A DNA stretch of 64,000 nt, from the IMG/VR virus record IMGVR_UViG_3300007511_000003, positions 62,001 to 126,000 of that record. One strand, written 5' to 3'. Positions 3,919 through 42,743 of the stretch are shown one piece after another. Every line of letters begins with the position of its first letter. The stretch's first letter is position 1. The translations under genes were made by a program, and so were the position numbers. This DNA comes from a virus. The notes beneath the pieces are model-generated. The model saw only the letters and a list, made by a program, of their open reading frames with translations. It ran no database searches and was not told the DNA's origin.

Positions 3919-4713
3919 TTACTCCACTGAAAGTAAGCTAGAGTCCTCCTGGATAGCACTGTAAAACGCGGGAGAACTTACAGCACTGGTTTCAAAACCT
4001 TGGACCCCATGTACCTGCCGATACACCAGCCTGTTACCTTTCTTGTAGAAATCAACAGGCCGGTTGGCAGATATATGACTACAATGCCCCAGTTCCTTCC
4101 CACAGTAGGAACAACTGTACTGGTCTACGTAGGCACCCATGGAATAACTGTTCATCTGCCCACTAAGGATATCCTTCACCAGGTCAGGATCCTTAGTGCG
4201 GTCAAACGCCAAGAGCTCCAGGAACTTCCAGACCTTTCCTTGACCGAACTCCGGCATCTTACGGAGGTAGGTATCGGCGATAACACCACGGGCTTTTGAC
4301 AGAACAGTGTTCTTATGTTCAACAAAACATGGTTTCCCTTTAAACGTCTTGAACGCCTGCATCCCTGCTTCAGGGTTGAACGCTACCATTGATGCCAGCG
4401 GGAACGCCACACCATTCCTGTTTGGTAAGTCTGTTGGAATCGTAATAACCGGCACCATCACAAAGTCCTCGAGGTTGTCAGAGATCTCGTAGGTTTTGCT
4501 GGCAAAAGGTAACCATTGGCTGATGTCTAGCGAGGTATCTCCGCTTTCCATTCCAAGGACCTCATTCCGCATTACGACCCTGCCCGAGGCTAAGGTCACA
4601 TCTTTTCGTTTGACCGCCTGGTGGACCTCCAGAGGGTTGCAAAGGGCTCTTCCACCGAGATCATAGTTGGCTGTCTTGTTCACAGGACGCCGACCTGGCA
4701 AAAATTGTGTCAT
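3919..4713 (-). CDS. Prohead (capsid maturation) protease
   Basis: 264 residues. IPTDLPNRNG, FKTFKGKPCFVEH and a later NSYSMGA match the serine protease fold of phage prohead proteases. H133 (in VEH) and S191 (in SYSMG) are the likely catalytic pair. A Cys/His cluster follows (C201, C204, C211, H213), probably zinc-binding. It would process scaffold and internal head proteins. It overlaps the portal stop by 4 bases (ATGA), the usual portal-protease order. It is the natural candidate to remove the shared N-terminal tags of downstream gene products. Confidence 0.75.
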   Translation of the reverse strand: MTQFLPGRRPVNKTANYDLGGRALCNPLEVHQAVKRKDVTLASGRVVMRNEVLGMESGDTSLDISQWLPFASKTYEISDNLEDFVMVPVITIPTDLPNRNGVAFPLASMVAFNPEAGMQAFKTFKGKPCFVEHKNTVLSKARGVIADTYLRKMPEFGQGKVWKFLELLAFDRTKDPDLVKDILSGQMNSYSMGAYVDQYSCSYCGKELGHCSHISANRPVDFYKKGNRLVYRQVHGVQGFETSAVSSPAFYSAIQEDSSLLSVE

Positions 4714-7700
4714 GACACGTCTCCATAGGGATTCCGACGACCAATAAAACGCTGTGCCATTCGTTGTCGGCGTTTGTTGTTGGGTTCCTTGGCAATCTCA
4801 CGGACCGCCTTGATTATCTTATCATTGATGGCTTTGTTGGCACGTGTTTGGTTGAACACGTGCCGTTTCTTGCCAGCTTTGTCGGTCGTAGACAACTCTG
4901 CGAGGTCTCCGAAATCCCTGTCCGTAAGGGTCTGGCGTTTGATAGACCGCAGACCAGAGAAGGAAAAATCATCGTCGTCCTCGTCATCACCTCCACCTTT
5001 AAGTTCCTTGATTCGGTCCTTAATCTCCGCGTCTTCCTCAAGGTCACTCATCAGGCTGTCAACAGATAGACCACCGGCAGCAGCCCACATCCGCAGAGGG
5101 ACCGGCACTCCCTTCTCGGTCAGGGTCTCCAATACTGTCAGGTACTCGGTGTCCGCCTCAGGCCGAAGGGCTTTATGCCAGTGCATGGTTGGAATAACCA
5201 GTTTACTGGTATCAGCCGTATACCACTGTACCATGTCGGTTGTCAACATAGGAGTTGTCCGACGGGCCGCCGACTCCTCAGGTGTCCTGTGTCGATAGTA
5301 AGGGTTAGGCTTTGGAGCATCCTCTTCCTTCTCAAAGCCATTGATAACCGAGATCAATGGAAACAGCTTGTTGTAAAACACCCTGTGGGTGGTCATGTCA
5401 CGGAACGCCCGCATGTGTTCAATAAACACTGACAACGCTACTTCCATCGTTCCATACGACATGTCTCCACTGTTATGTACCACGATACCGTTAGACACAA
5501 AGGCAGGTGCCACTTTGTGTTCCATGGTCAGGTCATACAAATGGGAAGTTCCAGCTGGTTTTACCTCCTGTACCGGGTCAAAGAAGTACTGGAGTTCAGA
5601 CAAGCGCACCAATCGTCTGACAACTACAGGATCAATTTGTTCCAGGATATCCAATAAATCGGAGTATAGACCTTTCTCAAAGTTAGAGTAGGGCAGGACT
5701 CCATCTCGATGTTTACCCTTCCCAACCGTTGATCCCAAGTATTTTGAGGTGCGGTGACCAAAGCCTTCAATTAAAACTGGTTGGCCTTCCGCATTTTCAA
5801 ACCACTCACCAACATTGGTTTCTCTGCGGATCCAACGGGATGCCAAGAAGTTTCGGATAGGTGGTATAGGTACCCCGAATGTACGTCCTTGTAAATCCGC
5901 TTCACGTACATCGTACTGGTTTTTTTCAGTATGGGCCAACCAAGGACGTAGACGCCTGTAAAATTTGTTCCCAAAATACCGAATAACACTTAACCATTTG
6001 GGGTGGTCAGTCATCCGAAAGCTGGGTACCCCGAGGTCCGCCAATAGTATCTGCATTTGGTCCAACAATTGGCCACTACTACTGCAAAAACGCAGAGCCA
6101 CAGTATCTTTCCTTTGGGCAACAGAGCCATCACCGTCAAGAAAAGCGGCAATGAAAGCCAATCGGCATTCCGTCGGGGCCTGAAGGATGGACCAAGGTAC
6201 TACTCTGTAGGCAGACGGATTGTTCACCTCGGATTTCCGTTTCTGTACGACCCCGAGTTCCTTCAACCAATGTACGACCTTTACCTCCTCGAAGGACATC
6301 TTGTAAACATCCGAATTGGAGGTACCCGTCACACCCTTAATGTTATACCTACGACCTTTCGGGCTACTTAAGGTCCGTTCAGGAACCACACCAAAAACAG
6401 AGGTAAAAGCCTCTTGGTATCGGTCAAGGACTCCCAGATTCGAATTCGTGATCGAAACCACGTTTTTCTTCTTAAGTGTGCCCTCAGACACGATAAGTCC
6501 TAACACATAGGCCAAATCGGGTGTCATTTCTGTCGGTTTGGTTGCAGCTTTTTGGGACCAACCTCCTTTAACCAGATAATCTGTGAGGTTCAGCCTCAGG
6601 GGTTCCGTCGCCTCCTGCCCCTGTGTGTCAATGCACAGGTAATCGGATTTTTGAAGGCGCTTCACAGGAACCCATTCCGGACGTAGGTCTTGTCCCAAAG
6701 TCAGTACCTCATGCTTCTTTGTTGTTGTGACATTATACCCGGATTGTGTAGTGGTTTTGACAACAGGTGATTTACCCCGGTACCACCAATGAATGGCTTT
6801 TGCAAACTCTCCAGAACGCCCCTTGACCAACAAATCTGTGGTGTACCCTTGGTCTTTACGTAGGCCCCTACGATCATACAATTGGTCAATAGGAATTAGG
6901 CCACGTTCCGTGTGAACATACGAGCCTTCCGCCAAACACAAAAAGCCCTCATTTATCCCAAGAGCCTGCATCTTGAGGTTGGAGGTCTCTGGAATAGTAT
7001 CCGTCCATTTCCAGGAGTCACCGCCGCTCCTGATTTCATTGGTATTCACATCATCACGTGTGGCAATCATGGCACCAACAGGATCTAAGTCCGCTTGTTG
7101 GAACAGGGCTACGATAGCCTTGAGCTCCTCATCCGTGGGTTCCCAATCCTCATCCCCTGCCACGATATGCAGGATCGACCGTTGCCTCTTTGCTGCCTCT
7201 GTCAGTGTACCCCTGTACAGGATCTTCTCCAGAAAGTAAATAGGCAGCAGCCGATGATACAACGAGGTACCACGATTGTTAAAGGTAAAGCTGCGCCTGG
7301 GTACATAAAGCGTGGTCAACGGATCGAGCGTCACCTCTGGGGCTCGCATGGCTCTCAGCATACCCGGGGACAGTCGTTCCTTCAGACGTTCGATGTGCGG
7401 TTCCCGGCTGTTGATGAACTCCTTCATGTCGGCCCCAATTTTCATCTTAATCAGAGGATCGGTGCCATACAAGGGAGTCGGAATCACAGTACAGTCGGCT
7501 ATGTTCTGTGGTATCAAATCAGTAAATAATTTCTCCGCCTTTTTAAACACGAGGGTGGATACGAAGGTGCCGAGCACGAGGTAATCTACACTCATTTCAG
7601 GCATTAGACTACGCATGTTCAGGCGGTCCAAATTGGACTCGAACACCTCCAGTTGCCTCTCATCGGCTCCGCTAAGAGTCCAATCACTGAAGGGTAGGGT

Positions 7701-7961
7701 ACTCATGAGGTCTACAGCCGCGCCGGCGATAGGGTCGTGGTAGTAGATATCCGTGTAAATGTCAAACAGTTGGCGAGGGTCGGAGGGTATTACACCATCC
7801 AGCATACCGTCCTTGATGGCTCCGAGTCCGGTATAACCCATCTGCATGTTGACATTACCACCACCCATACCAAAGGGTGACATCTGATAACTGGATCTTA
7901 CCTGAGGACGTTGGTCTGTCACAGATGCCCGTACGGCTATCTTCCGGCTACTTTGAAACAC
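4710..7961 (-). CDS. Portal protein interrupted by an in-frame intein
   Basis: 1083 residues as encoded, about 594 after splicing. The N-extein (1-341) has portal-like text: LFDIYTDIYYHDPIAGAAVDL, LPFSDWTL. The C-extein resumes at Ser831 with GDMSYGTMEV and ends in a basic tail. The intein occupies 342-830. The portal forms the dodecameric DNA channel at the head vertex, and the terminase docks on it. Overlaps at both ends (protease 4 bases, zinc protein 14 bases) support one operon. The intein interrupts the conserved core, so splicing is needed for a working portal. Confidence 0.85.
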   Translation of the reverse strand: MFQSSRKIAVRASVTDQRPQVRSSYQMSPFGMGGGNVNMQMGYTGLGAIKDGMLDGVIPSDPRQLFDIYTDIYYHDPIAGAAVDLMSTLPFSDWTLSGADERQLEVFESNLDRLNMRSLMPEMSVDYLVLGTFVSTLVFKKAEKLFTDLIPQNIADCTVIPTPLYGTDPLIKMKIGADMKEFINSREPHIERLKERLSPGMLRAMRAPEVTLDPLTTLYVPRRSFTFNNRGTSLYHRLLPIYFLEKILYRGTLTEAAKRQRSILHIVAGDEDWEPTDEELKAIVALFQQADLDPVGAMIATRDDVNTNEIRSGGDSWKWTDTIPETSNLKMQALGINEGFLCLAEGSYVHTERGLIPIDQLYDRRGLRKDQGYTTDLLVKGRSGEFAKAIHWWYRGKSPVVKTTTQSGYNVTTTKKHEVLTLGQDLRPEWVPVKRLQKSDYLCIDTQGQEATEPLRLNLTDYLVKGGWSQKAATKPTEMTPDLAYVLGLIVSEGTLKKKNVVSITNSNLGVLDRYQEAFTSVFGVVPERTLSSPKGRRYNIKGVTGTSNSDVYKMSFEEVKVVHWLKELGVVQKRKSEVNNPSAYRVVPWSILQAPTECRLAFIAAFLDGDGSVAQRKDTVALRFCSSSGQLLDQMQILLADLGVPSFRMTDHPKWLSVIRYFGNKFYRRLRPWLAHTEKNQYDVREADLQGRTFGVPIPPIRNFLASRWIRRETNVGEWFENAEGQPVLIEGFGHRTSKYLGSTVGKGKHRDGVLPYSNFEKGLYSDLLDILEQIDPVVVRRLVRLSELQYFFDPVQEVKPAGTSHLYDLTMEHKVAPAFVSNGIVVHNSGDMSYGTMEVALSVFIEHMRAFRDMTTHRVFYNKLFPLISVINGFEKEEDAPKPNPYYRHRTPEESAARRTTPMLTTDMVQWYTADTSKLVIPTMHWHKALRPEADTEYLTVLETLTEKGVPVPLRMWAAAGGLSVDSLMSDLEEDAEIKDRIKELKGGGDDEDDDDFSFSGLRSIKRQTLTDRDFGDLAELSTTDKAGKKRHVFNQTRANKAINDKIIKAVREIAKEPNNKRRQRMAQRFIGRRNPYGDVS
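5472..6938 (-). mobile_element. LAGLIDADG-type intein in the portal gene
   Basis: Residues 342-830 of the portal frame (489 residues). It starts with Cys342 in CLAEGSYVHTERGLIPIDQL (block A) and has a block-B-like TTTKKHEVL. Two dodecapeptides of a homing endonuclease follow: AYVLGLIVSEGTL (484-496) and LAFIAAFLDGDGSV (601-614). It ends in LYDLTMEHKVAPAFVSNG then VVHN830, followed by Ser831. All residues for self-splicing are present (C1, B-block H, terminal HN, +1 Ser). The second dodecapeptide keeps its acidic residues and the first reads LIVSEG, so the endonuclease may be active. Confidence 0.92.
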
Positions 7962-22692: not shown

Positions 22693-23465
22693 TAGTAGTA
22701 CCCTAACAGTTTATGTTGTTGAGCAACCACCCGGATGTTATATCCTTGGTTCCAGTTCAGGATCATCTGGGTGATGCGTTGGAGTTCCTTAGTAGGAACA
22801 GGGCCCTTGGTGTTGTCAGCACAGGGCGTAAGGATGATTGGGTGTGACATAAAAGCGTGGTCTTGTAACAACCCACTGAAATGTTGTAATAACCAATCCA
22901 GGTCTTCTTGGTCTCGTACCACTGCCTTGGCATATACCTGGGGCATCTTCTCGATAACTTGGTAAAGGGCTGCCAGCACGTCGGCCCCCAATTCGACACC
23001 TGTATTTGGCGTCTTGATATCCAACGACACCTGATCAAAACAGTTAAAGGCTTGGCTGTCAATGATAGTACCGCTAGTCTCCAGGTTTGTTCGCAACCCT
23101 CGCCGTCGAAGTAAAGTCGAAAGGCGGGTTACTTGGGGGCGGTAGTGGAGAGGTTCGCCCCCTGTAATGGAAACCTCCACCACTTTACCTTTGACTATCT
23201 TTACCAATCGGTCCGCAAGCGAGGAGACCTCAGCCAAGGGGTGTTCTCCTACTGCCCAACTATCCTTGGTATCACAAGTAGTGCAGCCTACAGCACATCC
23301 GGATACACGGATAAATAGCCTGGGTACCCCTATGTTTATACCCTCCCCCTCCAAAGTCTCCTGGATTTCCATCACAGGGAGAACATCGTCGGGCACCTCA
23401 TGGATTCCCAGTTTCAAGAGGTTACACTTAAACTTGGGTACCACCACATTGATCGGCTTAATCAT
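22692..23465 (-). CDS. queE: 7-carboxy-7-deazaguanine synthase
   Basis: 257 residues. A radical SAM cluster C57-x3-C61-x2-C64 (CAVGCTTC), an earlier EIQETLEGEG, VSITGGEPL (SAM-binding GGEP) and LETSGT define QueE. It converts 6-carboxytetrahydropterin to 7-carboxy-7-deazaguanine. The substrate comes from FolE plus QueD; no QueD is visible in this window. 4-base overlap with the polymerase gene. Confidence 0.93.
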   Translation of the reverse strand: MIKPINVVVPKFKCNLLKLGIHEVPDDVLPVMEIQETLEGEGINIGVPRLFIRVSGCAVGCTTCDTKDSWAVGEHPLAEVSSLADRLVKIVKGKVVEVSITGGEPLHYRPQVTRLSTLLRRRGLRTNLETSGTIIDSQAFNCFDQVSLDIKTPNTGVELGADVLAALYQVIEKMPQVYAKAVVRDQEDLDWLLQHFSGLLQDHAFMSHPIILTPCADNTKGPVPTKELQRITQMILNWNQGYNIRVVAQQHKLLGYY

Positions 23466-25534
23466 CCTTCGACTCCTTCATAAAATTCAGTGTTCAGCGG
23501 GAAGTGTTCGTCCAACCAAGGTTGTATCCGTTTGCCTTCCGCACGAATCATTGCCATTGTCTCTTCTACATTTACATTGTAGCCAATTTCATCGCGTTGA
23601 CGTTCTAACGCCGACCGGATGTTGTGCAGGAGGTTTTTCTTGGTGTAATCCCACTTTTGCATGGCGTCCCCGGAAGCCCCTATGTCAAAGTCTACCGCTA
23701 GCCCTACGTTAAACTGGAAATGAAACGTCTCTGCCACTTTCTGCTCAACGCCGACTGTAGTACACCACTCCAGCAATCGGAGGACCAAAGGAATATACCG
23801 ATAGTTCACCTCCACTTCAACGCTGTCATGGACCATCATGGACGGGTAAAGGTTCGTTGGAACCCCTATCGACTGGAGTTCTTCCCCGTCAGGATCCAGC
23901 CCATATAAGTCCTGTAAGCTTTCCCACAGTTTTTCACTGTACAGGCGTGCAGCAAGGAATCCCAACTGGCTGGCGAATCCCTGAATAGGGCTGTTGGCCG
24001 CCCGTCGTTTCATGGCGGACACCAGACCAGGAACCTCTGTCATGTAAGCAAACAGGTTTCGCTTGAACCCCAGAGGGTTGTAGGTGTACAAACGGTCGGC
24101 ACTAAAATCGCATGTCCACTGGATCCAGTTGCCTGCCTTGAAAAACTTGGCAAAGAAACCGCCCTTCACCTTTTTCATCTCAGCTTCTGACTTTCCAGTG
24201 TCCCGAGCCAAAGACCTATCCGACTTACCATACATGGTCCCAAAGGTAATCACCTTTGAATCCTGCCGTTGTTCCTTTGTCACCTTCTCTACAGGTGTGC
24301 CAGTAAAGAACTGGTAGTTAAGTTTGTGGGGGTCGCCCTTCTCTTTTAAGTCGTCTCTGTGCCGAGCGGTCGGTTGCTGGCGGAACCGCAGACGGAGGTT
24401 GTGCACAACCTTAAACATCATGGCCAGCACGGCATCCTTGCTGATGATACCCCAACAACGCACCTCATGAGCGGCATAATCAAGCTTAATAACCAAACAA
24501 CCCACACGGGCAGTGAATGAACGTTTGATAAACTTGGCATCAGGACCGTGTTGGGGTGTTTGTTGGAGGCTTGGTTCTGAGCTATTACTGCGCCCTGTCA
24601 CAACATCCTTAAATCCATACTGCGGACGTAACCTGTGGTCCACCTTCCCGTCACGGGATTTACCAATCTTCTTGTAGAAGGCGTTGACATAGGATGTGAG
24701 CAACTTCTTGAGCTTGGACAAGGTGGTGAAGTCAGCCACCTCTGGATGTTCTTTGTACTTTTTCTGGAATGCGGCGTCTATTGAAGCGGCATCATCCTTA
24801 CCTGTTGACAGAGGTTCCAGCCCCATCACCTGGATAAACAACATCTGTTTGTGGGCGGCTTTATTGGGATCAAATACCCAAGCCTGGGTGTTACCAAATA
24901 TACCACCGCCTGGGGGAACCCCTTGTACTTCACACAACAATCGGTTGGCGGTCTGGACATGTTCTGACTCTCTCATCTGAGCCGCGAGTTCCTTCCGTTT
25001 GGCCAGCACTGGGGACCGTCGGCGGTCGCGGAGCAACAACAGGTATTCGATATCCAGATGGGCTCCTGTTTGTTCCATGCCACTCATCACATGGACAGTA
25101 TCCGACATCTGAGTAAGCAATAAGCGCCTATAAAACCTTCTGTAGTTGTGTTTACCTACCCGTTGGAGGGCCGCCCTTTCTTGCTGGAGTTCATGGACAC
25201 GGAAGCAAGCTTGAGTATCCATTGCACAATAGTCTAATACCTCGTCAGACAGGTCTCTGTTGGCTATGTCTTGACGGTCATCTTTAGAAAACCTGGCGTC
25301 ATAGTAAAAGGCGTTCCCATAGTAGGCCAATATTTGTGCCAACCCATAAGCTGGTGTACCGTACAGCATCAACACCTTCATGTTCTCGTCAAGGCAATTG
25401 TGAACCAAAACTGGTTTATCACTAATTTCATTACAAATAAATAGGTTGTGATTATCCTGTACCGTAACATCACATACCATAGGTGGGGAGTCAACCACCT
25501 TTACCGACTTAACTCTTACAGTTCGGGTAACCAT
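23462..25534 (-). CDS. DNA polymerase I family, C-terminal half with split-intein C fragment
   Basis: 690 residues. Residues 1-46 are a C-terminal split intein ending in VLVHN, followed by Cys47. The extein starts CLDENMK, then the Exo III motif (Y102, D106 in LDYCAMD). The polymerase domain has motif A VIKLDYAAHEVR (D352), motif B RQDSKVITFGTMYG and motif C MMVHDSVEVEV (H569, D570). It is joined in trans to the N-terminal gene 1 kb upstream, giving a spliced polymerase of about 1010 residues. Its ATG is back to back with the ATG of the endonuclease gene on the other strand (CATATG). Confidence 0.92.
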   Translation of the reverse strand: MVTRTVRVKSVKVVDSPPMVCDVTVQDNHNLFICNEISDKPVLVHNCLDENMKVLMLYGTPAYGLAQILAYYGNAFYYDARFSKDDRQDIANRDLSDEVLDYCAMDTQACFRVHELQQERAALQRVGKHNYRRFYRRLLLTQMSDTVHVMSGMEQTGAHLDIEYLLLLRDRRRSPVLAKRKELAAQMRESEHVQTANRLLCEVQGVPPGGGIFGNTQAWVFDPNKAAHKQMLFIQVMGLEPLSTGKDDAASIDAAFQKKYKEHPEVADFTTLSKLKKLLTSYVNAFYKKIGKSRDGKVDHRLRPQYGFKDVVTGRSNSSEPSLQQTPQHGPDAKFIKRSFTARVGCLVIKLDYAAHEVRCWGIISKDAVLAMMFKVVHNLRLRFRQQPTARHRDDLKEKGDPHKLNYQFFTGTPVEKVTKEQRQDSKVITFGTMYGKSDRSLARDTGKSEAEMKKVKGGFFAKFFKAGNWIQWTCDFSADRLYTYNPLGFKRNLFAYMTEVPGLVSAMKRRAANSPIQGFASQLGFLAARLYSEKLWESLQDLYGLDPDGEELQSIGVPTNLYPSMMVHDSVEVEVNYRYIPLVLRLLEWCTTVGVEQKVAETFHFQFNVGLAVDFDIGASGDAMQKWDYTKKNLLHNIRSALERQRDEIGYNVNVEETMAMIRAEGKRIQPWLDEHFPLNTEFYEGVEG
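25397..25534 (-). mobile_element. Split intein, C-terminal fragment (IntC)
   Basis: The 46 residues before Cys47 of the polymerase C-half: VKSVKVVDSPPMVCDVTVQ, then NHNLFICNEISDK and PVLVHN. They match the last intein blocks (F: DVTVxxNHNLF; G: VHN|C). There is no upstream intein part in this gene; the partner is IntN at 26553-26846. Confidence 0.9.
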
Positions 25535-26593
25535 ATGAAGACCTCAGAAATACGTATGTTAGTGGAGCGGCGAGTGTTTGACCAAAAAATAAAGTTAACT
25601 CAAAAATTTGTACGAGACATGTCACCAAAACTCTTAGGATATTGCCAAAAGGAAGCTCTGCGAATTTATGGAGGTAAATACCCACCCTGGTGGGCTATTC
25701 TCTATAAAGTTATTTACAAGGACCACTATCGGTGCCGGTGTGGGTCCGAAAAACTAGCTTGGCAGGGTTGGGAAGGCGGTCTGGCGGAATACTGTTCCTG
25801 TAAATGTGCAGGGGCCTCTCCGGATGTTTTGAAAAAGAGGGAACATACTTGCCAACAAAAGTACGGTACTAAACATGTACAATCGGTACCTAGTATACGT
25901 GCTAAATTTAAACAGTCTATGGTACGAAACCAAGGAGTAGAATACACAGCCCAAAGCCCACGCTTAAAAAAGAAGATGCGTAAAACACTCAAAAAGAACC
26001 ATGGAGTCGAAGAAACTTTCCATTCCATGGTTCTTTATGGTAAAGCAAAGGCCACCATGTTACAGAAATATGGTGCTGAGCATAACCAACAGGTCCCCCA
26101 CCTGTTTGAACAACAACAAAGGTCAGGTTTTAAAATACGTACCATAAAAGTTAATGGGAAACGGTTTAGGGTACGTGGAGGGGAAGGTCATGCTATAAAA
26201 TACCTTGTCCACGAACTTGGGTGTTCTATAGACGAAATTTACACGACGGCGGTACAAGGTAAGCCATCCATCCCTTGGTATGACAATAAAAACAAGTACC
26301 ACATATATCACCCTGACATCTATGCCAAAGTTAAAGGGCGATGGTTTATTATTGAAGTCAAAAGCACGTATACAGCGGGTATAACCACCAAGTCTGGGGC
26401 TGAGTTTTACCGGCTACGTATGAAGGCAAAGGGTGTGGAAGAGGCCGGTTACAATTTCAGGACACTCCTTGTCCATTATGGACGGTCCCTCCCTCTTGAC
26501 TACCGTCCACTTGTTATTAAAGACATACACCAAAAGACCAGAAAACAGGTTAGGTCTGAAGTAAAACTTCATCGTCAGAGGTTAGGTTCTTAG
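25535..26593 (+). CDS. Homing endonuclease, Vsr-like PD-(D/E)XK type, between polymerase halves
   Basis: 352 residues from the ATG at 25535; an open frame extends further upstream, but that start would lie inside the polymerase gene. The N-terminal half has about three repeats of the KYGxxHxxQ / GVExxxxS / KYGxEHNQQ type found in phage-borne DNA-binding proteins. The C-terminal nuclease has GGEGHAIKYLV, then YHPDIYAKVKGRWFIIEVKS, followed by TAGIT. It lies on the opposite strand between the two genes of the split-intein polymerase and overlaps the tail of the N-half by 44 bases. Small basic/zinc parts (CRCGSEK, CSCKC) also occur. It probably cuts intein-free polymerase alleles. Confidence 0.82.
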   Translation: MKTSEIRMLVERRVFDQKIKLTQKFVRDMSPKLLGYCQKEALRIYGGKYPPWWAILYKVIYKDHYRCRCGSEKLAWQGWEGGLAEYCSCKCAGASPDVLKKREHTCQQKYGTKHVQSVPSIRAKFKQSMVRNQGVEYTAQSPRLKKKMRKTLKKNHGVEETFHSMVLYGKAKATMLQKYGAEHNQQVPHLFEQQQRSGFKIRTIKVNGKRFRVRGGEGHAIKYLVHELGCSIDEIYTTAVQGKPSIPWYDNKNKYHIYHPDIYAKVKGRWFIIEVKSTYTAGITTKSGAEFYRLRMKAKGVEEAGYNFRTLLVHYGRSLPLDYRPLVIKDIHQKTRKQVRSEVKLHRQRLGS

Positions 26594-27944
26594 CTTTTAC
26601 ATAGGAACCTCGGGTAACCGACCAAACCTCATGGTCTTCAGTAACGCGAATGGATCCCCCTTCATAGGATATTTCCACCATTCGTTGGTCTGTTGGGTGG
26701 GTAGAAGTAGCTAAAAGTGGTTTATATTCTTCCTGTTGTGTTTTATGGTTATATGATAAAACCTGAGGAGGATTCCCCATAACCACCAAGTCTTTCATTT
26801 GTACCATACCACGTTCCGTTACCACCCAAGACTCTGGGTGTATACAGAACTCACCGGCAATGGTGTCCCAAACAGGCCAATAAATGAATGGGAGATCGAA
26901 CTCCTGACGTATAATACGAAGGTCAAATTTGGCGTTGTGCATAACCAAATAACGAGGGGATTTAGGCTGCCATTCCACTCGTTGCCCAAAGTAGGCACGT
27001 AGTTCCTTAAATATTGTGCGGAACTCTGATCCTGAGAATGGGGTATCACGATGGTGTACAGGGAGGATAAAAGCCCTGTCGGGATTGTCTGAGAATTGGA
27101 GGGTCTGGAGTTGGTTATGATGAACGGACAGGTTCTTGGTCTCTGAGTCAACGGAAACCACGGGAGCCCGTTTAATGACCCTCATCATACGCTTAAACTT
27201 GCTCAACGTATCGATGAGGATTGGATTTGGCCGCACCTCGGAGGCCGTAAATGGGAGTCGGTCCAAAAACGCCGACATGAGAGTGCGTCCGATATATCCA
27301 AGAATATTGGCCTGGGTGATGGCTTCATCCATCTTTGTCTGACTCTCGGCATCGGAGTCATTGTCCATGTCGGTACCACGCAAAAAATAGGTGTGGTCGT
27401 ACCGTATGGTGTTGGTGACCAGGACAGGCTTCCCTCGCACTTTGATAGCATGGGGCCAACCCCTTTTATGTGAAATGTCATCCACCCGGGGTAACAGGGA
27501 TTCTGCCGCTTCATCCCCAAATACTATCACGTTCGTCGGATCCATCTTGCGAACAAACGCCTTTACTCGCTTAGAAGCAGCATCATTGGCGTGCTTACGT
27601 CGGGCACCTTTGAGGTGGTAGGTCTTGAAGAAATTGAAGTTGATGGTGGCATAAGCCACCGATTCCTCAATGGATTCTGGGTTGACAAGAGCACATTGTC
27701 GGCGGGCAAATTGTAGGAGGTTCGTGACAACGGTGGCGCCGGTTCCTCGATCCAATAACGCCTTTTCCTTGAGGTCTTTACCATCCACATGTTCTACCAC
27801 CAGAATAACACGGCGCCTGGCGGTCTTCCAGTTTTTCGTTATAGGGATAGCTACGTCAAATGCGGGGCATTCCTTTGGGCTCCAACCCTCTGGAAGATCG
27901 TTTTGGAAAGTCACATAACGCATCTGCCGGCGGTCTGTTATCAC
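26550..27944 (-). CDS. DNA polymerase, N-terminal half (UDG-like and 3'-5' exonuclease) with split-intein N fragment
   Basis: 464 residues. Residues 1-230 resemble a uracil-DNA-glycosylase-like domain, as in SPO1-type polymerases (VIVFGDEAAESLLP, GWPHAIKVRGKPVLVTNT). Exo I (VVSVDSET, D266/E268) and Exo II (VMHNAKFDL, D341) follow. The extein ends WDTIAGEF366 and Cys367 opens the intein. The break lies between Exo II and Exo III, which sits in the other gene. ATGA overlap with tmk upstream. Confidence 0.92.
   Translation of the reverse strand: MITDRRQMRYVTFQNDLPEGWSPKECPAFDVAIPITKNWKTARRRVILVVEHVDGKDLKEKALLDRGTGATVVTNLLQFARRQCALVNPESIEESVAYATINFNFFKTYHLKGARRKHANDAASKRVKAFVRKMDPTNVIVFGDEAAESLLPRVDDISHKRGWPHAIKVRGKPVLVTNTIRYDHTYFLRGTDMDNDSDAESQTKMDEAITQANILGYIGRTLMSAFLDRLPFTASEVRPNPILIDTLSKFKRMMRVIKRAPVVSVDSETKNLSVHHNQLQTLQFSDNPDRAFILPVHHRDTPFSGSEFRTIFKELRAYFGQRVEWQPKSPRYLVMHNAKFDLRIIRQEFDLPFIYWPVWDTIAGEFCIHPESWVVTERGMVQMKDLVVMGNPPQVLSYNHKTQQEEYKPLLATSTHPTDQRMVEISYEGGSIRVTEDHEVWSVTRGSYVKAKNLTSDDEVLLQT
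26553..26846 (-). mobile_element. Split intein, N-terminal fragment (IntN)
   Basis: The last 98 residues of the polymerase N-half: CIHPESWVVTERGMVQMKDL (block A, Cys1), a middle SYEGGSIRVTEDHEVW with the block-B TxxH (here TEDH), and KAKNLTSDDEVLL before the stop. With IntC it makes a complete trans-splicing intein of about 144 residues with no endonuclease of its own. Confidence 0.9.
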
Positions 27945-36762: not shown

Positions 36763-37410
36763 TTACTCCATTGATTCGACCATCTTTTCCTTTATGTGCC
36801 CTCGCTGTGACTCAATGTATCGAGCAATCGTACCGGCACTCTCACGCGCCAAATTGTTCAATTGAGGATGCCTGTGCTCTGGCACATAGGTTTCCAATGA
36901 TCTCTTGAGATTGTGTAAGCTATCAATCACCACCTGCGCGATACCGATAAAGGCGGGATCGATTATTTCCGATGACAGTTGCAGAGCCAGTTGCCTACCA
37001 TCCCTCTCTGCCTGCATGTCTGCAATTAGCTCCCTTGCTTGGGAAACCAGACTGTTTAAGGCATAGGCAGCCCTCTCTGAACCCTCCTGCCTGTACTTGT
37101 CTTCTGCTATGGGTATCAGGTCCATCAGGGACTTCAACATAGTACGCTGAAACCGATTGACCGCGCTCTCTGTCTGCTGGTCTTCCAGTAGGGATGCGAT
37201 TTCTGTTACGTCATCCTTAAACAAAGAACGCAGGTTCTTCAAACGACGTGCTTGTTGACGCTGTTTCTTGGTCAAGCCGCTAGACGGGGGCCTCCCCTCT
37301 TTATGAGAGGAAGAGACCTTGCCCGCCCGCGATTTTTTTAACCGCTGCGACTTAACATGTGATACAGCCACATCCCGACGTTGGGCATATTGCTTACCCC
37401 TGACTGTCAT
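36763..37410 (-). CDS. Hypothetical helical protein with basic N-terminus
   Basis: 215 residues. The first 60 are Lys/Arg/Ser-rich (nucleic-acid-binding-like), the rest amphipathic helix. Possible internal head protein by context; no family signature. Confidence 0.45.
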   Translation of the reverse strand: MTVRGKQYAQRRDVAVSHVKSQRLKKSRAGKVSSSHKEGRPPSSGLTKKQRQQARRLKNLRSLFKDDVTEIASLLEDQQTESAVNRFQRTMLKSLMDLIPIAEDKYRQEGSERAAYALNSLVSQARELIADMQAERDGRQLALQLSSEIIDPAFIGIAQVVIDSLHNLKRSLETYVPEHRHPQLNNLARESAGTIARYIESQRGHIKEKMVESME

Positions 37411-37941: not shown

Positions 37942-38234
37942 TCCATCTTGAAAAGTTTTTGAAAGTTGGCTACTTCCAGTATTCTACGGACGCCAGGACG
38001 TGCGTGACGTAATACTACACGCTTGGGTCCTAGCTTTTCGTTGGCTATTAACAGAATACCAAGGGCAGCACTATCAATGTACCTGGCATGTCTTAGGTCA
38101 ACCACAAGATTCTGGTCGGGTTTAACCTGGTCCATAGCCTTCCGAAACATACCATGACATTCAAATTGGAAGGTACTGGGTGGTACAAACACCACTTCCT
38201 TACTATCCGAGTGTATTTTGCACTCCTGTTCCAC
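37938..38234 (-). CDS. STAS-domain protein (anti-sigma-factor antagonist-like)
   Basis: 98 residues, one complete STAS domain: NLVVDLRHARYIDSAALGIL with the phosphorylatable serine at residue 55 (YIDSAALG), then RVVLRHARPGVRRIL and FQKLFKM. In bacteria such proteins (SpoIIAA/RsbV family) bind anti-sigma factors or partner kinases. A phage version could redirect host stress or anti-sigma switches. No kinase partner is seen in the window. Confidence 0.82.
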   Translation of the reverse strand: MEQECKIHSDSKEVVFVPPSTFQFECHGMFRKAMDQVKPDQNLVVDLRHARYIDSAALGILLIANEKLGPKRVVLRHARPGVRRILEVANFQKLFKME

Positions 38235-38938
38235 TATGATACTCCACTTGCGAAGTCTATTGCCATCTGCTTCGCGTCATCCATCGTTTCCGCCTGCCAC
38301 TCCCCACGCCCTCTGTTAAACTGCTCAACATGGTCTGTATAGATGACCTGACTTTCATCACCTTTTGGCCAAATTTCATAGGATACATGGATGTTTACAC
38401 TGTCACCGTCCTCGTGGAGAGTGATCTCTTTGTTCTGGTACATGTCATCTGAGTACCATGCCTCAACGTCCTCGAGGAATTCCTGTGGGTCGGAAGGGTG
38501 AAAAGCACAATCACCTTTCTTGACTTTGGAGCCGACTCCAAACCCATACATGGCGCGGTGACTCCACCCATACCACTTTTGTTTGGCCTCACAGTATCCA
38601 ACAGAGCAGACATTGTGGTCGGGTGCTGACAGTTCGGGTACGATTCCTCGTTTTGCCAAAGAGGCAGCGAACTCGGGATCCCCTATATAATCCCCATCTA
38701 GGTTGTATGCACTCTTCATCTCCAGCGGCTTATTGGAACCCGACTCTCCAGGCGGAATCTCTTCGGTCCTCACTTGGTAAGTAGGGAACGTCTGTATGCT
38801 TAGGACCTTTCGCAAACTCGACAAGGAGAGCCGGGCTAGGGCCTGAAACCTCAGGCCCTTGCTAGGCACCATGGCACAAACTTGGCCGCGGTGTATTACT
38901 GGAATACGTGGAAGCAGGACAACCCGTAGGGATTTCAT
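38234..38938 (-). CDS. Hypothetical protein with QALARL-type leader
   Basis: 234 residues; ATG at 38938 follows the previous stop by 3 bases (an inner ATG at 38872 is possible). MKSLRVVLL starts it and QALARLSLSSLRKVL lies near 32-46. The later domain has VGYCEAKQKWYGWSHRA, a text I associate with conserved large-phage proteins of unknown function. One-base overlap with the STAS gene. Confidence 0.55.
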   Translation of the reverse strand: MKSLRVVLLPRIPVIHRGQVCAMVPSKGLRFQALARLSLSSLRKVLSIQTFPTYQVRTEEIPPGESGSNKPLEMKSAYNLDGDYIGDPEFAASLAKRGIVPELSAPDHNVCSVGYCEAKQKWYGWSHRAMYGFGVGSKVKKGDCAFHPSDPQEFLEDVEAWYSDDMYQNKEITLHEDGDSVNIHVSYEIWPKGDESQVIYTDHVEQFNRGRGEWQAETMDDAKQMAIDFASGVS

Positions 38939-39645: not shown

Positions 39646-39765
39646 TCACATTCCCAGCAACAGCCTCATTTTTACCCATGCAAAAAACATCGCACCACCT
39701 ACTATATACAGTAATCCCATAAAGAACAGCTCTTCCTTCCAGTGAGGGCCCCTTGGATCTTTCAT
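39646..39765 (-). CDS. 39-residue membrane peptide
   Basis: Starts inside the ligase stop (ATGA overlap): MKDPRGPHWKEELFFMG, then a hydrophobic helix (LLYIVGGAMFFAWVKM). The exact coupling to ligA supports a real gene. Unassigned. Confidence 0.5.
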   Translation of the reverse strand: MKDPRGPHWKEELFFMGLLYIVGGAMFFAWVKMRLLLGM

Positions 39766-40730
39766 TTTTCTAGGTTGAACGTCTCAACCAGCTCTTCCCT
39801 AGTCATGATCTTGATGCCAAGGTTAACCGCTTTCCGCTCCTTGGAACTGCCAGTACCTTTAAGTTTCATCACCAGGACTGTCACTTTCCTGGAGATGCCG
39901 CTGGCGATAGTACCGCCCTCACGTTCGATTTGTTCTTGTAAGTCTTTATCCCTGAAGCCGGTAAACACCACAATCTCACCCGACATCTTGTCACCCTCTG
40001 GAGGAGCCACAGGACCTAGTGTTTCAATGGTAATCAGGCGTTTGATGGGTTTTACGAAGGCCTGGAATTTGGGAAATCCTTGGGCAAACTGCTTGGCACG
40101 CTTACTGCTGAACCCAGATACAGACAGGGCCATATGCTCCAAGTCCCGAGGGTTAGGTCTGTTAAGATCCATGATCTGCGGGTATTTCTCAACCAGTGGT
40201 GTTAACTGCCGTACACCAAAGCCAGGACCGAATACCCCAGAAGCCGCCATCAATACGGGCAGAGACACTGGATTCAAAGCTTTCTTAATCCCGGTGACGA
40301 TGGTGGTGGCCGTTTTATCCTGGATGCCAGGAACCGCCATCAAGTCTTTTTTCGTGGCTCGGATAACGGCTTCGATGGAGTCGATTCCATGAGTAGCCAA
40401 CCGTTGGATTGTACCTTGAGCAAAGTTTTCGACTTCAATGGCCTTAAAAAACCAAGCAATTTGTTTTACCAACTGTTCGTCGGTGTCCCCCGTGGCGCGT
40501 ATATCGACACCAGAGGAAGTCCATTCAAAGTTACCGTCTTCCGGTAATCCTGCCTTGCGGCTAGGAGCAACAACCTCCAAAATATGCGGGATAACATCTC
40601 CACTCCTTGTAATCTTGAGGACCGCACCAGGCCCTACCTTGTTGTCGTTGATGAACTTGGCATTGAAACCAGTTACCCGACGGATAGTTACCCCTCCCAA
40701 TCTAACACCAGGACGTACACTTTTAGCCAT
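39762..40730 (-). CDS. ligA: NAD-dependent DNA ligase, C-terminal fragment
   Basis: 322 residues. It begins inside the OB domain (VRLGGVTIRRVTGFNAKFI, ITRSGDVIPHI), continues with helix-hairpin-helix repeats (LMAVPGIQDKTA, GVFGPGFGVRQL) and ends with a BRCT domain (GEIVVFTGFRDKDL). The four zinc-ligand cysteines of LigA are absent. It starts 8 bases inside the 3' end of the endonuclease gene (ATGGCTAA). With the N-terminal fragment at 41760-42743 it covers a whole LigA, so the two products probably assemble without covalent joining. Confidence 0.88.
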   Translation of the reverse strand: MAKSVRPGVRLGGVTIRRVTGFNAKFINDNKVGPGAVLKITRSGDVIPHILEVVAPSRKAGLPEDGNFEWTSSGVDIRATGDTDEQLVKQIAWFFKAIEVENFAQGTIQRLATHGIDSIEAVIRATKKDLMAVPGIQDKTATTIVTGIKKALNPVSLPVLMAASGVFGPGFGVRQLTPLVEKYPQIMDLNRPNPRDLEHMALSVSGFSSKRAKQFAQGFPKFQAFVKPIKRLITIETLGPVAPPEGDKMSGEIVVFTGFRDKDLQEQIEREGGTIASGISRKVTVLVMKLKGTGSSKERKAVNLGIKIMTREELVETFNLEK

Positions 40731-41760
40731 GGTGTATCCCCTTTAAAATCTGAGTGCGTGTCTTCCGATACCAACCTCGTGGCAAAACTATGCGTTTGGG
40801 GGAGCCGTTATCATTTTGCATAACCAAAAGTCGAAAGATAAAACCATCCTTCATTGTCTGTCGGGCTTTAGCACACAAAATGTGCCATAAACGGTCAGGG
40901 GAGCTTTTATGTAATCTATGGTTTGTTAATCCTGCCGTGTGTAAAGACTTTACTTCTATAAGTATGTTACGGTCCGGGAGGAACAAATCGGGGTAGTACC
41001 TACGGTTCTTTCCGTCAAGTTGGTAATATACAACCGGCACTTCGCGGTCACTAAATACTCGGATCCTTGAAGGATCCACCCCTTTTTTGTGGAGTAACCA
41101 ATCCAATGCTAGGTCTTCATATCCTTGTACCTGAACGACCCGGGAACCTAACGTATAAGAATGATAAAATCTTGTGCTGGAACAAGCATTACATGCCAAG
41201 CCTCGTTTAGCCAACACGGAAGAAGGGCGGGCCGTAAATAAGGCACCGCAAGAAAGGCATTTATGTTCTATTGGAACACTAATACCCTTATACACTCCTA
41301 TAGGCTGTAGGGCTTTACCTAATTTCTCCAACCTCTCACCGTATCTCTCTGTGGTATGTAGGCCATGTTTTGACGGGTTGCATGATCGACAACCAACACC
41401 ACGTTTAACAGCCTCTGTGGTATACCAATCCTGGGTATTACAAAACTTACATTGATACAGGTTTTTGGCATTCTTCAACCGACGATAACCTTCCATAACA
41501 TAAAAGGAAGAGTTACGGATTTCTGTCATATGGTTGCACATCGAATGGAAATTCTGCAACCTATCAGAGCAGGCAGGGCAGTTAAGGAACCCGTTTTTCG
41601 TGGTCCTGGGTTTAGTTATAAACCCATTACCGCAGATCTTACAATAATGGCTACAAGGTACGTGAACACCGGAATACCCGGAAAGGTACCCTACCAAAGT
41701 AGAATCCAAGGATTTAATATACTCTTGTTCTCTTACCTCGAGAGATTTAGACATACCCAT
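40723..41760 (-). CDS. Homing endonuclease (zinc-finger, Vsr-like PD-(D/E)XK) splitting ligA
   Basis: 345 residues. Five CxxC pairs in the N-terminal two thirds (CKICGNGF, CPACSDR, CKFCNTQ, CRSCNPS, CLSCGALF/CNACSS) form repeated zinc modules. The C-terminal nuclease reads VQGYEDLALDWLL, YYPDLFLPDRNILIEVKS, TAGLT, colinear with the enzyme at 25535. It starts on the TAATG of the ligase N-fragment and ends on the start of the C-fragment, so it fills the gap completely. Likely cuts uninterrupted ligA. Confidence 0.85.
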   Translation of the reverse strand: MGMSKSLEVREQEYIKSLDSTLVGYLSGYSGVHVPCSHYCKICGNGFITKPRTTKNGFLNCPACSDRLQNFHSMCNHMTEIRNSSFYVMEGYRRLKNAKNLYQCKFCNTQDWYTTEAVKRGVGCRSCNPSKHGLHTTERYGERLEKLGKALQPIGVYKGISVPIEHKCLSCGALFTARPSSVLAKRGLACNACSSTRFYHSYTLGSRVVQVQGYEDLALDWLLHKKGVDPSRIRVFSDREVPVVYYQLDGKNRRYYPDLFLPDRNILIEVKSLHTAGLTNHRLHKSSPDRLWHILCAKARQTMKDGFIFRLLVMQNDNGSPKRIVLPRGWYRKTRTQILKGIHHG

Positions 41761-42743
41761 TACATCGGTTCCACTATGACAGTAGGTTTCAAAATACCAT
41801 GCTTAGACACGTTCCATTCTACACTCACCACCCTACATTTCACTATCTGATCCTCCATCAACATCTTGAAGGCTACGCTGTACCGAGGGTTGCCAGATGT
41901 GGCGCGTTTGTATATTGAGTCCTGTGTGACCACCAGACCGTCTATGGCAAACTTAGAGCTCTTCCGCCTCGCAATGAGTCTGTCAGAGAGTGTCTGGGCG
42001 TCCAGGACCTTATAGGCCTTGGCAGGAGCGACCGTGAATCCAAGCTGGTGTTTCAGGTAGTTGAGCTGTTCGGAGGGTTTCTTGCGTGGAACGATGAGTT
42101 CGTAGCACACCAAGGTGGCGTCTTTGAGGGCAGGGCTGACATCCGGGCGGTTGACCAACCCACCCATGAAATTCCGTGGGTTTGCGAAGTCCTTGGCGTA
42201 CTTCTTGAACGCCGTCTCGGACATGATGATCTCGGCCCGTACCGCGAAGGTGTCCTGTGTCTTGGGAAGCCCAAGAATTGGCACCATGGACGTTACATCC
42301 TGTCCGACCTTACCGTTACCTCGGGTAAACAGTTGGTACCGGCCCTTGGTACAGATGATAAGCATTGAGATGCCGTCCATCTTGTCCGACACCACGTAGG
42401 GCCCTGGGTTGGCGTCAAACCAACGGTCAAGGTCTGGAGTGTTGGGTTTGATCTTGTCGAGGGAACCCATCCAATAGGGCAGTTTTTGTTTCTTACCCTG
42501 ATCGACAGGAGCGCCTACTTTTTGGAGCAAAGGGCTGTCAGGGAACCTCTGGCGGAACGTATCCTCAATCGCGTCAAACTCGGCGTCTGACAAGAAAGGG
42601 CTTCCCTTGTAGTACGTGTTCTTGGCCCGGCGGTATAACTGACGTAGCAGCCGAGCGGACAACTTTGAGGCATAACCTCCAGGGTCTGCCTTTAGGGCTG
42701 TCAAATCGAACTCATACGCTGCCACTTCCCTCAACCTTTTCAT
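41760..42743 (-). CDS. ligA: NAD-dependent DNA ligase, N-terminal (adenylation) fragment
   Basis: 327 residues. Ia-type NAD-binding text YYKGSPFLSDAEFDAIEDTF, adenylation lysine K121 in SDKMDG, FTRGNGKVGQDVT, and AIDGLVV then VAFKML. It stops in the OB domain at the conserved EP (VEWNVSKHG, TVIVEPM). No intein sequence is attached. The rest of the ligase is the gene at 39762-40730. ATGA overlap with the upstream tagged gene. Confidence 0.9.
   Translation of the reverse strand: MKRLREVAAYEFDLTALKADPGGYASKLSARLLRQLYRRAKNTYYKGSPFLSDAEFDAIEDTFRQRFPDSPLLQKVGAPVDQGKKQKLPYWMGSLDKIKPNTPDLDRWFDANPGPYVVSDKMDGISMLIICTKGRYQLFTRGNGKVGQDVTSMVPILGLPKTQDTFAVRAEIIMSETAFKKYAKDFANPRNFMGGLVNRPDVSPALKDATLVCYELIVPRKKPSEQLNYLKHQLGFTVAPAKAYKVLDAQTLSDRLIARRKSSKFAIDGLVVTQDSIYKRATSGNPRYSVAFKMLMEDQIVKCRVVSVEWNVSKHGILKPTVIVEPM

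What the first reader, a model, noticed from the sequence alone, without database searches (positions are those of the whole stretch)
23462..27944. DNA polymerase broken into two genes by a split intein, with an endonuclease gene in the gap
The N-half ends with a 98-residue IntN; the C-half starts with a 46-residue IntC and Cys+1. The exonuclease domain is interrupted between Exo II and Exo III. A Vsr-like homing endonuclease lies between them on the opposite strand, its ATG back to back with the C-half ATG (CATATG). This is the fractured-gene arrangement known for some metagenomic split inteins, here on a phage family-A polymerase with a UDG-like N-terminus.
Basis: partly seen in the sequence, partly recalled or inferred. 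Interest (0 to 1): 0.85.

Follow-up and report, generated by a model that had tools for sequence, protein, structure and literature searches.

The report
Phage DNA polymerase fractured by split intein
A large phage's DNA polymerase gene is cut into two genes by an inserted mobile block (two halves of a protein-splicing intein around an endonuclease gene), so the enzyme must almost certainly be glued together after translation; this is a good new example of a known arrangement, and a pair of near-identical Dickeya phages found here shows such a block inserting cleanly as one unit.

Summary
On the minus strand, gene 26550-27944 encodes 366 polymerase residues plus a 98-residue IntN; gene 23462-25534 encodes a 46-residue IntC, Cys+1 and 644 polymerase residues; a complete endonuclease gene (25535-26593, plus strand) fills the gap. 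All splicing residues are present. The intein is nearest in the PDB to NrdJ-1; its nearest relative found (43%) is an unsplit mini-intein at another site of a related polymerase. All 78 related viral loci read uninterrupted across this junction. IntN-HEG-IntC is the lowest-GC 1450-bp stretch of the window, so it looks like one foreign cassette. This is a fractured gene in the sense of Dassa 2009: a new member of a known kind. Correction: the endonuclease is not Vsr-like by motif; it is a DUF7487 protein with an intact PD-(D/E)XK signature. New evidence on mechanism: Dickeya phages JA33 and JA13 are an occupied/empty pair for the same kind of cassette in a helicase, with mismatches clustered at the junction (P about 1e-16), a homing footprint. 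The same phage also has its DNA ligase broken by a related endonuclease without any intein. Splicing and homing of the window cassette itself remain inferred.

The parts
26847..27944 (-). N-extein, 366 aa: UDG-like N-terminal region plus Exo I and Exo II of the 3'-5' exonuclease
   Evidence: Pfam DNA_pol_A_exo1 E=1e-8 covering profile 3-98 of 173; phrog_17 DNA polymerase E=1.8e-15; alignment with 8 intact polymerases
26553..26846 (-). IntN, 98 aa, C1 ... TEDH (block B)
   Evidence: TIGR01445 intein_Nterm from residue 367, above cut-off; NrdJ-1 match
26550..27944 (-). N-half gene, GTG start in a 4-nt overlap with the thymidylate kinase gene; stop codon 26550-26552
25535..26593 (+). Homing-endonuclease-type gene, 352 aa: N-terminal part matching phage homing endonucleases (61-197) and C-terminal PD-(D/E)XK nuclease domain (200-352) with E217, D261, E274, K276 intact
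   Evidence: Pfam DUF7487 E=3.8e-28; phrog_3339 homing endonuclease E=2e-11; alignment A8; AlphaFold2 model; Foldseek
26550..26593 (.). 44-nt tail-to-tail overlap of N-half and HEG
   Evidence: same geometry in JA33 (69 nt) and fHe-Yen9-02 (64 nt)
25397..25534 (-). IntC, 46 aa, block F VTVQDNHNLF and block G VLVHN
   Evidence: sequence; aligns with the C-terminal part of the L086 mini-intein
25541..25545 (-). GAGGT, Shine-Dalgarno-like site for the C-half, lying inside the HEG codons
   Evidence: sequence; function is inference
23465..25396 (-). C-extein, 644 aa from Cys+1: Exo III and the complete family-A polymerase domain
   Evidence: Pfam DNA_pol_A E=2e-36; phrog_17 E=1e-65
23462..25534 (-). 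C-half gene, ATG start, stop in overlap with the radical-SAM (QueE-like) gene
25397..26846 (.). Whole inserted cassette IntN-HEG-IntC, 1450 bp
   Evidence: GC 0.426, lowest of 1251 sliding 1450-bp windows; GC3 0.33-0.41 against 0.55-0.57 in the exteins

Best explanation
A mobile cassette (IntN - antisense homing endonuclease - IntC, 1450 bp) has inserted in frame into a family-A DNA polymerase gene of a jumbo-type phage. The operon transcript yields two polypeptides. IntN and IntC associate, splice themselves out through Cys1, the block-B His, the terminal Asn and Cys+1, and join ...AGEF to CLDEN... to restore a 1010-residue polymerase whose exonuclease domain is otherwise incomplete. The endonuclease, read from the other strand, cleaves uninterrupted alleles and the break is repaired from the occupied copy, spreading the cassette. 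Shown by sequence: anatomy, intact residues, empty homologues, foreign composition. Shown by proxy in Dickeya phages: clean insertion as a unit with a conversion footprint. Inferred: actual splicing, actual cleavage, expression.
For: Splicing motifs complete and TIGR01445 placed exactly at Cys1; NrdJ-1 is the best PDB sequence match (E=2e-9). The related mini-intein model also has NrdJ-1 as best fold match, though at low model confidence. Joined exteins align without gap or loss at the junction with intact polymerases, and natural uninterrupted alleles read AGEFCLDENM or AGEFCFDENM. 78 of 78 other viral loci are uninterrupted at this site. The cassette is compositionally foreign. HEG catalytic residues intact. 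Same architecture in three helicase genes (JA33, fHe-Yen9-02, L038/L103). JA33 carries a 1496-bp in-frame insertion absent from JA13, with 13 mismatches in the 30 nt at the junction, then none out to 220 nt on one side and 599 nt on the other (P about 1e-16).
Against: No experiment, transcript or proteome. No close (over 50% identity) uninterrupted relative of this polymerase was found, so the homing footprint cannot be read in the window itself. The HEG has no convincing ribosome-binding site and no promoter signal above chance, so its expression is unproven. The two halves could also work without splicing, as split polymerases and reductases of T4-like phages do (PMC2988022).
Confidence: 0.9

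Rival explanations
1. The two halves act as a two-subunit polymerase held together non-covalently (by the intein domains or by the exonuclease fold); the intein no longer splices.
For: Split phage polymerase (43A/43B) and NrdA halves of Aeromonas phages are functional without an intein (PMC2988022). In this same phage the DNA ligase is in two pieces with no intein.
Against: Every residue needed for class-1 splicing is kept in both halves; the ligase shows that a fracture without an intein looks different, since its LigA match runs 1-332 and 333-652 with nothing between.
Confidence: 0.06
2. The polymerase gene is decaying: the cassette has killed it and another polymerase replicates the phage.
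For: None direct; the 168.9-kb record may be incomplete, so a second polymerase cannot be excluded.
Against: Both halves have intact frames and intact exonuclease and polymerase motifs and sit in the conserved replication operon; the only match to the C-half in the record is this gene.
Confidence: 0.02
3. Assembly artefact or chimera.
For: Source is a metagenome-derived virus record.
Against: A second record from another dataset is identical over 14 kb and a third carries the IntN/HEG end; the same architecture occurs in the isolates JA33, JA11 and fHe-Yen9-02.
Confidence: 0.01

Closest known systems
Fractured genes (Dassa et al. 2009, doi 10.1093/nar/gkp095; text not held, known to me from memory)
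   Same: Conserved DNA-replication enzyme cut by a split intein with a free-standing endonuclease gene between the intein halves; intein-free homologues exist
   Different: Here in a family-A polymerase of a jumbo-type phage, with an antisense DUF7487 PD-(D/E)XK endonuclease rather than the Vsr-like family prominent in that paper; whether family-A polymerase was among its eight enzyme types could not be checked
NrdJ-1 split intein (PDB 8ubs)
   Same: Best PDB match by sequence (E=2e-9); same Hint fold
   Different: Different extein; clearly diverged
Pseudomonas phage MIJ3 PolB split intein (PMC6892783)
   Same: Jumbo-phage DNA polymerase in two genes with an endonuclease gene between the intein halves
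   Different: Family-B polymerase and an HNH endonuclease
Contiguous mini-intein in the polymerase of IMGVR_UViG_3300006086_000006 (L086)
   Same: 43% identical intein in an orthologous polymerase
   Different: Unsplit, no endonuclease, inserted at polymerase motif A (DYSAHEVR|CW) instead of between Exo II and Exo III
Dickeya phage JA33/JA11 helicase (JA33_155/156; PMC6143709)
   Same: IntN - antisense DUF7487-type HEG - IntC, tail-to-tail overlap with the N-half, head to head with the C-half
   Different: Extein is a UvsW-like helicase; the endonuclease is unannotated, and the passages of the paper that I read report two ORFs and an insertion or deletion only

Membership tests
Fractured gene (split intein plus endonuclease gene) | Conserved enzyme coding region divided into two same-strand neighbouring genes ending in IntN and starting with IntC | tested here: met
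Fractured gene (split intein plus endonuclease gene) | Free-standing endonuclease gene between the halves | tested here: met
Fractured gene (split intein plus endonuclease gene) | Intein-free homologues read through the site | tested here: met
Fractured gene (split intein plus endonuclease gene) | Protein trans-splicing occurs | not testable with these tools
   needs expression
Class-1 split intein | Cys1, block B TxxH, terminal HN, Cys+1 | tested here: met
   C1, T69-E-D-H72, V-H-N, C+1 in the sequences
Vsr-like / EDxHD homing endonuclease (I-Bth0305I) | Vsr-like catalytic domain | tested here: not met
   No Vsr or I-Bth0305I match in Pfam, PDB sequences or the top 50 PDB folds; the motif has E-x-K after PD. 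A direct profile comparison with I-Bth0305I was not made.
PD-(D/E)XK endonuclease, DUF7487 type | Conserved E...PD...E-x-K on the expected alpha/beta core | tested here: met
   invariant G215, E217, P260, D261, E274, V275, K276 in 10 of 10; core model mostly pLDDT 80-95; weak fold matches to PD-(D/E)XK enzymes
PD-(D/E)XK endonuclease, DUF7487 type | Site-specific cleavage of the intein-free allele | not testable with these tools
   indirect: insertion footprint of a related cassette in JA33/JA13
Family-A DNA polymerase with proofreading exonuclease | Exo I-III and polymerase domain | tested here: met

The most novel reading that the evidence does not exclude
DUF7487 PD-(D/E)XK endonucleases are general gene-fracturing elements of jumbo phages. 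Paired with a split intein they travel as one cassette across replication genes (polymerase, helicase), and without an intein they split genes outright (the ligase here), so one genome holds both outcomes of gene breaking side by side.
Probability: 0.5. Interest if true: 0.65.

Novelty: new member of a known kind. Interest (0 to 1): 0.5.

Why it matters
It adds a family-A polymerase to the replication enzymes that seem to depend on protein trans-splicing in phages, gives a new split-intein candidate related to NrdJ-1, and ties an uncharacterised Pfam family (DUF7487) to homing. The JA33/JA13 pair turns the question of how fractured genes spread into something testable with existing isolates, and the intein-free ligase fracture in the same genome offers a direct comparison for how gene breaking starts.

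Tried and rejected
Vsr-like endonuclease: rejected on motif and fold searches. Assembly error: rejected. Bacterial origin: the polymerase profile found no relative in genome contigs, and the record is viral. Promoter scan of the cassette: no excess over shuffles, so no claim on its promoters. PDB sequence searches with the HEG, single and as a profile, found nothing meaningful. The first HEG alignment was too divergent for a collection scan. The Dassa 2009, I-Bth0305I and Carvajal-Vallejos papers are not held.

Full report
What is there. The window is bases 62001-126000 of a 168.9-kb virus record. On the minus strand, downstream of a thymidylate kinase gene, lies a 464-codon gene (26550-27944) whose first 366 residues are the N-terminal part of a family-A DNA polymerase and whose last 98 residues are an intein N-fragment. 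A 690-codon gene (23462-25534) starts with a 46-residue intein C-fragment and continues from Cys+1 with the rest of the polymerase. Between them, on the plus strand, a 352-codon gene (25535-26593) starts back to back with the C-half and runs 44 nt into the tail of the N-half.

The polymerase. Pfam sees the 3'-5' exonuclease split over the halves (profile 3-98 in the N-half, 108-166 in the C-half) and the whole polymerase domain in the C-half. Joining the exteins aligns without gap at the junction to eight uninterrupted phage polymerases: AGEF|CLDEN here, AGEYCLDEN in Vibrio phage GR11A, AGEFCLDDN in Pseudomonas phage Pori-4. A search for uninterrupted alleles found contigs reading AGEFCLDENM and AGEFCFDENM. 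Of 79 related viral loci one is this virus again, and the other 78 align in one piece across the site. Neighbouring genes (large helicase, polymerase, radical SAM, clamp or GTP cyclohydrolase) are shared with several of these phages.

The intein. The NCBIfam intein N-terminal model starts exactly at residue 367 and passes its cut-off. The combined 144 residues match the NrdJ-1 split intein at E=2e-9 and other Hint domains. Cys1, block B T-E-D-H, block F, terminal H-N and Cys+1 are intact. The nearest relative found is a contiguous mini-intein, 43% identical over the whole length, in an orthologous polymerase but at another site, motif A (L086). Its model, of modest confidence, has NrdJ-1 as best PDB match. 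So the splicing domain exists in split and unsplit form and has entered this gene at two sites.

The endonuclease. It belongs to Pfam DUF7487 (E=4e-28) and matches a phage homing endonuclease family. Ten relatives share G-x-E, P-D and E-V-K-S, a PD-(D/E)XK signature. The modelled C-terminal domain (mostly pLDDT 80-95) gives only weak matches, among which PD-(D/E)XK enzymes recur (RecU, RecE, HincII, Cas4-type, MGME1, cap-snatching nucleases); Vsr and I-Bth0305I do not appear among the top 50. The label Vsr-like is therefore not supported at family level. A distant relation inside the large restriction-endonuclease-like fold is not excluded. PMC12350094 describes phage endonucleases with CapR-like domains and a nuclease domain distantly related to EDxHD/Vsr; whether they are related to DUF7487 was not tested.

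One foreign block. IntN, HEG and IntC have GC 0.43, 0.43 and 0.38 and third-position GC 0.37, 0.41 and 0.33, against 0.50 and 0.55-0.57 for the exteins. The 1450-bp cassette is the lowest-GC stretch of its size in the window. This supports arrival as a unit.

The same cassette type elsewhere. Fractured UvsW-like helicases with an antisense relative of the HEG between the halves occur in Dickeya phages JA33/JA11, Yersinia phage fHe-Yen9-02 and contig L038/L103. In JA33 the endonuclease is an unannotated 375-codon frame. The JA-phage paper (PMC6143709) noted two helicase ORFs against one in JA13 and JA29 and left the meaning open; the passages I read do not mention an intein. Comparing the sequences, JA33 has a 1496-bp in-frame insertion running exactly from Cys1 to the last residue of IntC. 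Mismatches between JA33 and JA13 cluster at the insertion (13 within 30 nt), then none out to 220 nt on one side and 599 on the other; under the background rate this has P about 1e-16. Short co-conversion of flanking sequence is the expected trace of repair after a homing cut (PMC2988022 for T4 introns). In terminase genes (L111, L112) a DUF7487-like gene also lies within an atypically split intein, on the same strand.

A contrast in the same phage. The NAD-dependent ligase is also broken by a DUF7487 gene (40723-41760), here on the same strand and without an intein: the N-half matches LigA model positions 1-332 and the C-half 333-652. This is like the mobE-split NrdA of phage Aeh1, whose halves form an active enzyme (PMC2988022).

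Mechanism and limits. Most likely one transcript gives both halves (the C-half has a GAGGT site inside the antisense HEG), they splice in trans, and the HEG spreads the cassette. The anatomy is shown; cassette mobility is shown by proxy; splicing, cleavage and expression are inferred. Fractured genes are known, with a polymerase B case in jumbo phage MIJ3 (PMC6892783) and PolB split inteins in T4-like phages (PMC12707363). I therefore file this as a new member of a known kind. The original fractured-gene paper was not available to check whether family-A polymerase was among its examples.

Noticed in passing
window 39762-42743 (-): NAD-dependent DNA ligase split into two genes by a DUF7487 endonuclease gene (40723-41760, same strand), with no intein; the halves are exactly contiguous on the LigA model (1-332, 333-652). 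The endonuclease is also low in GC (GC3 0.425).
   Followed up: partly
window 4710-7961 (-): Portal-like protein (1083 aa; the portal label is my reading, not a database hit) carrying a contiguous LAGLIDADG intein, C...VVHN|S.
   Followed up: partly
L096 1393-2691 (G000 near base 37000, outside the window): Third DUF7487 gene of this phage, free-standing and antisense between a QueD-like and a pyrE-like gene.
   Followed up: partly
L093 1042-4148 (Dickeya phage JA33) and L118 (JA13): Occupied/empty pair of a helicase cassette with clustered junction mismatches; the endonuclease frame is missing from the deposited annotation.
   Followed up: yes
L094 2748-5845 (Yersinia phage fHe-Yen9-02): Helicase fractured at the DExH motif by a split intein with an antisense endonuclease; its C-half and the endonuclease are annotated as hypothetical proteins.
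   Followed up: partly
L111 3404-6472 and L112: Terminase large subunit with an atypically split intein (about 36-residue IntN) and a DUF7487-like endonuclease on the same strand.
   Followed up: partly
L070 4951-8666: Related polymerase with an in-frame HNH-like insert and a break into two overlapping reading frames, no intein recognised; L077 is also in separate frames.
   Followed up: no
window 38234-38938 (-): Tad6-like protein (Type I Thoeris inhibitor, Pfam E=1.7e-48).
   Followed up: no
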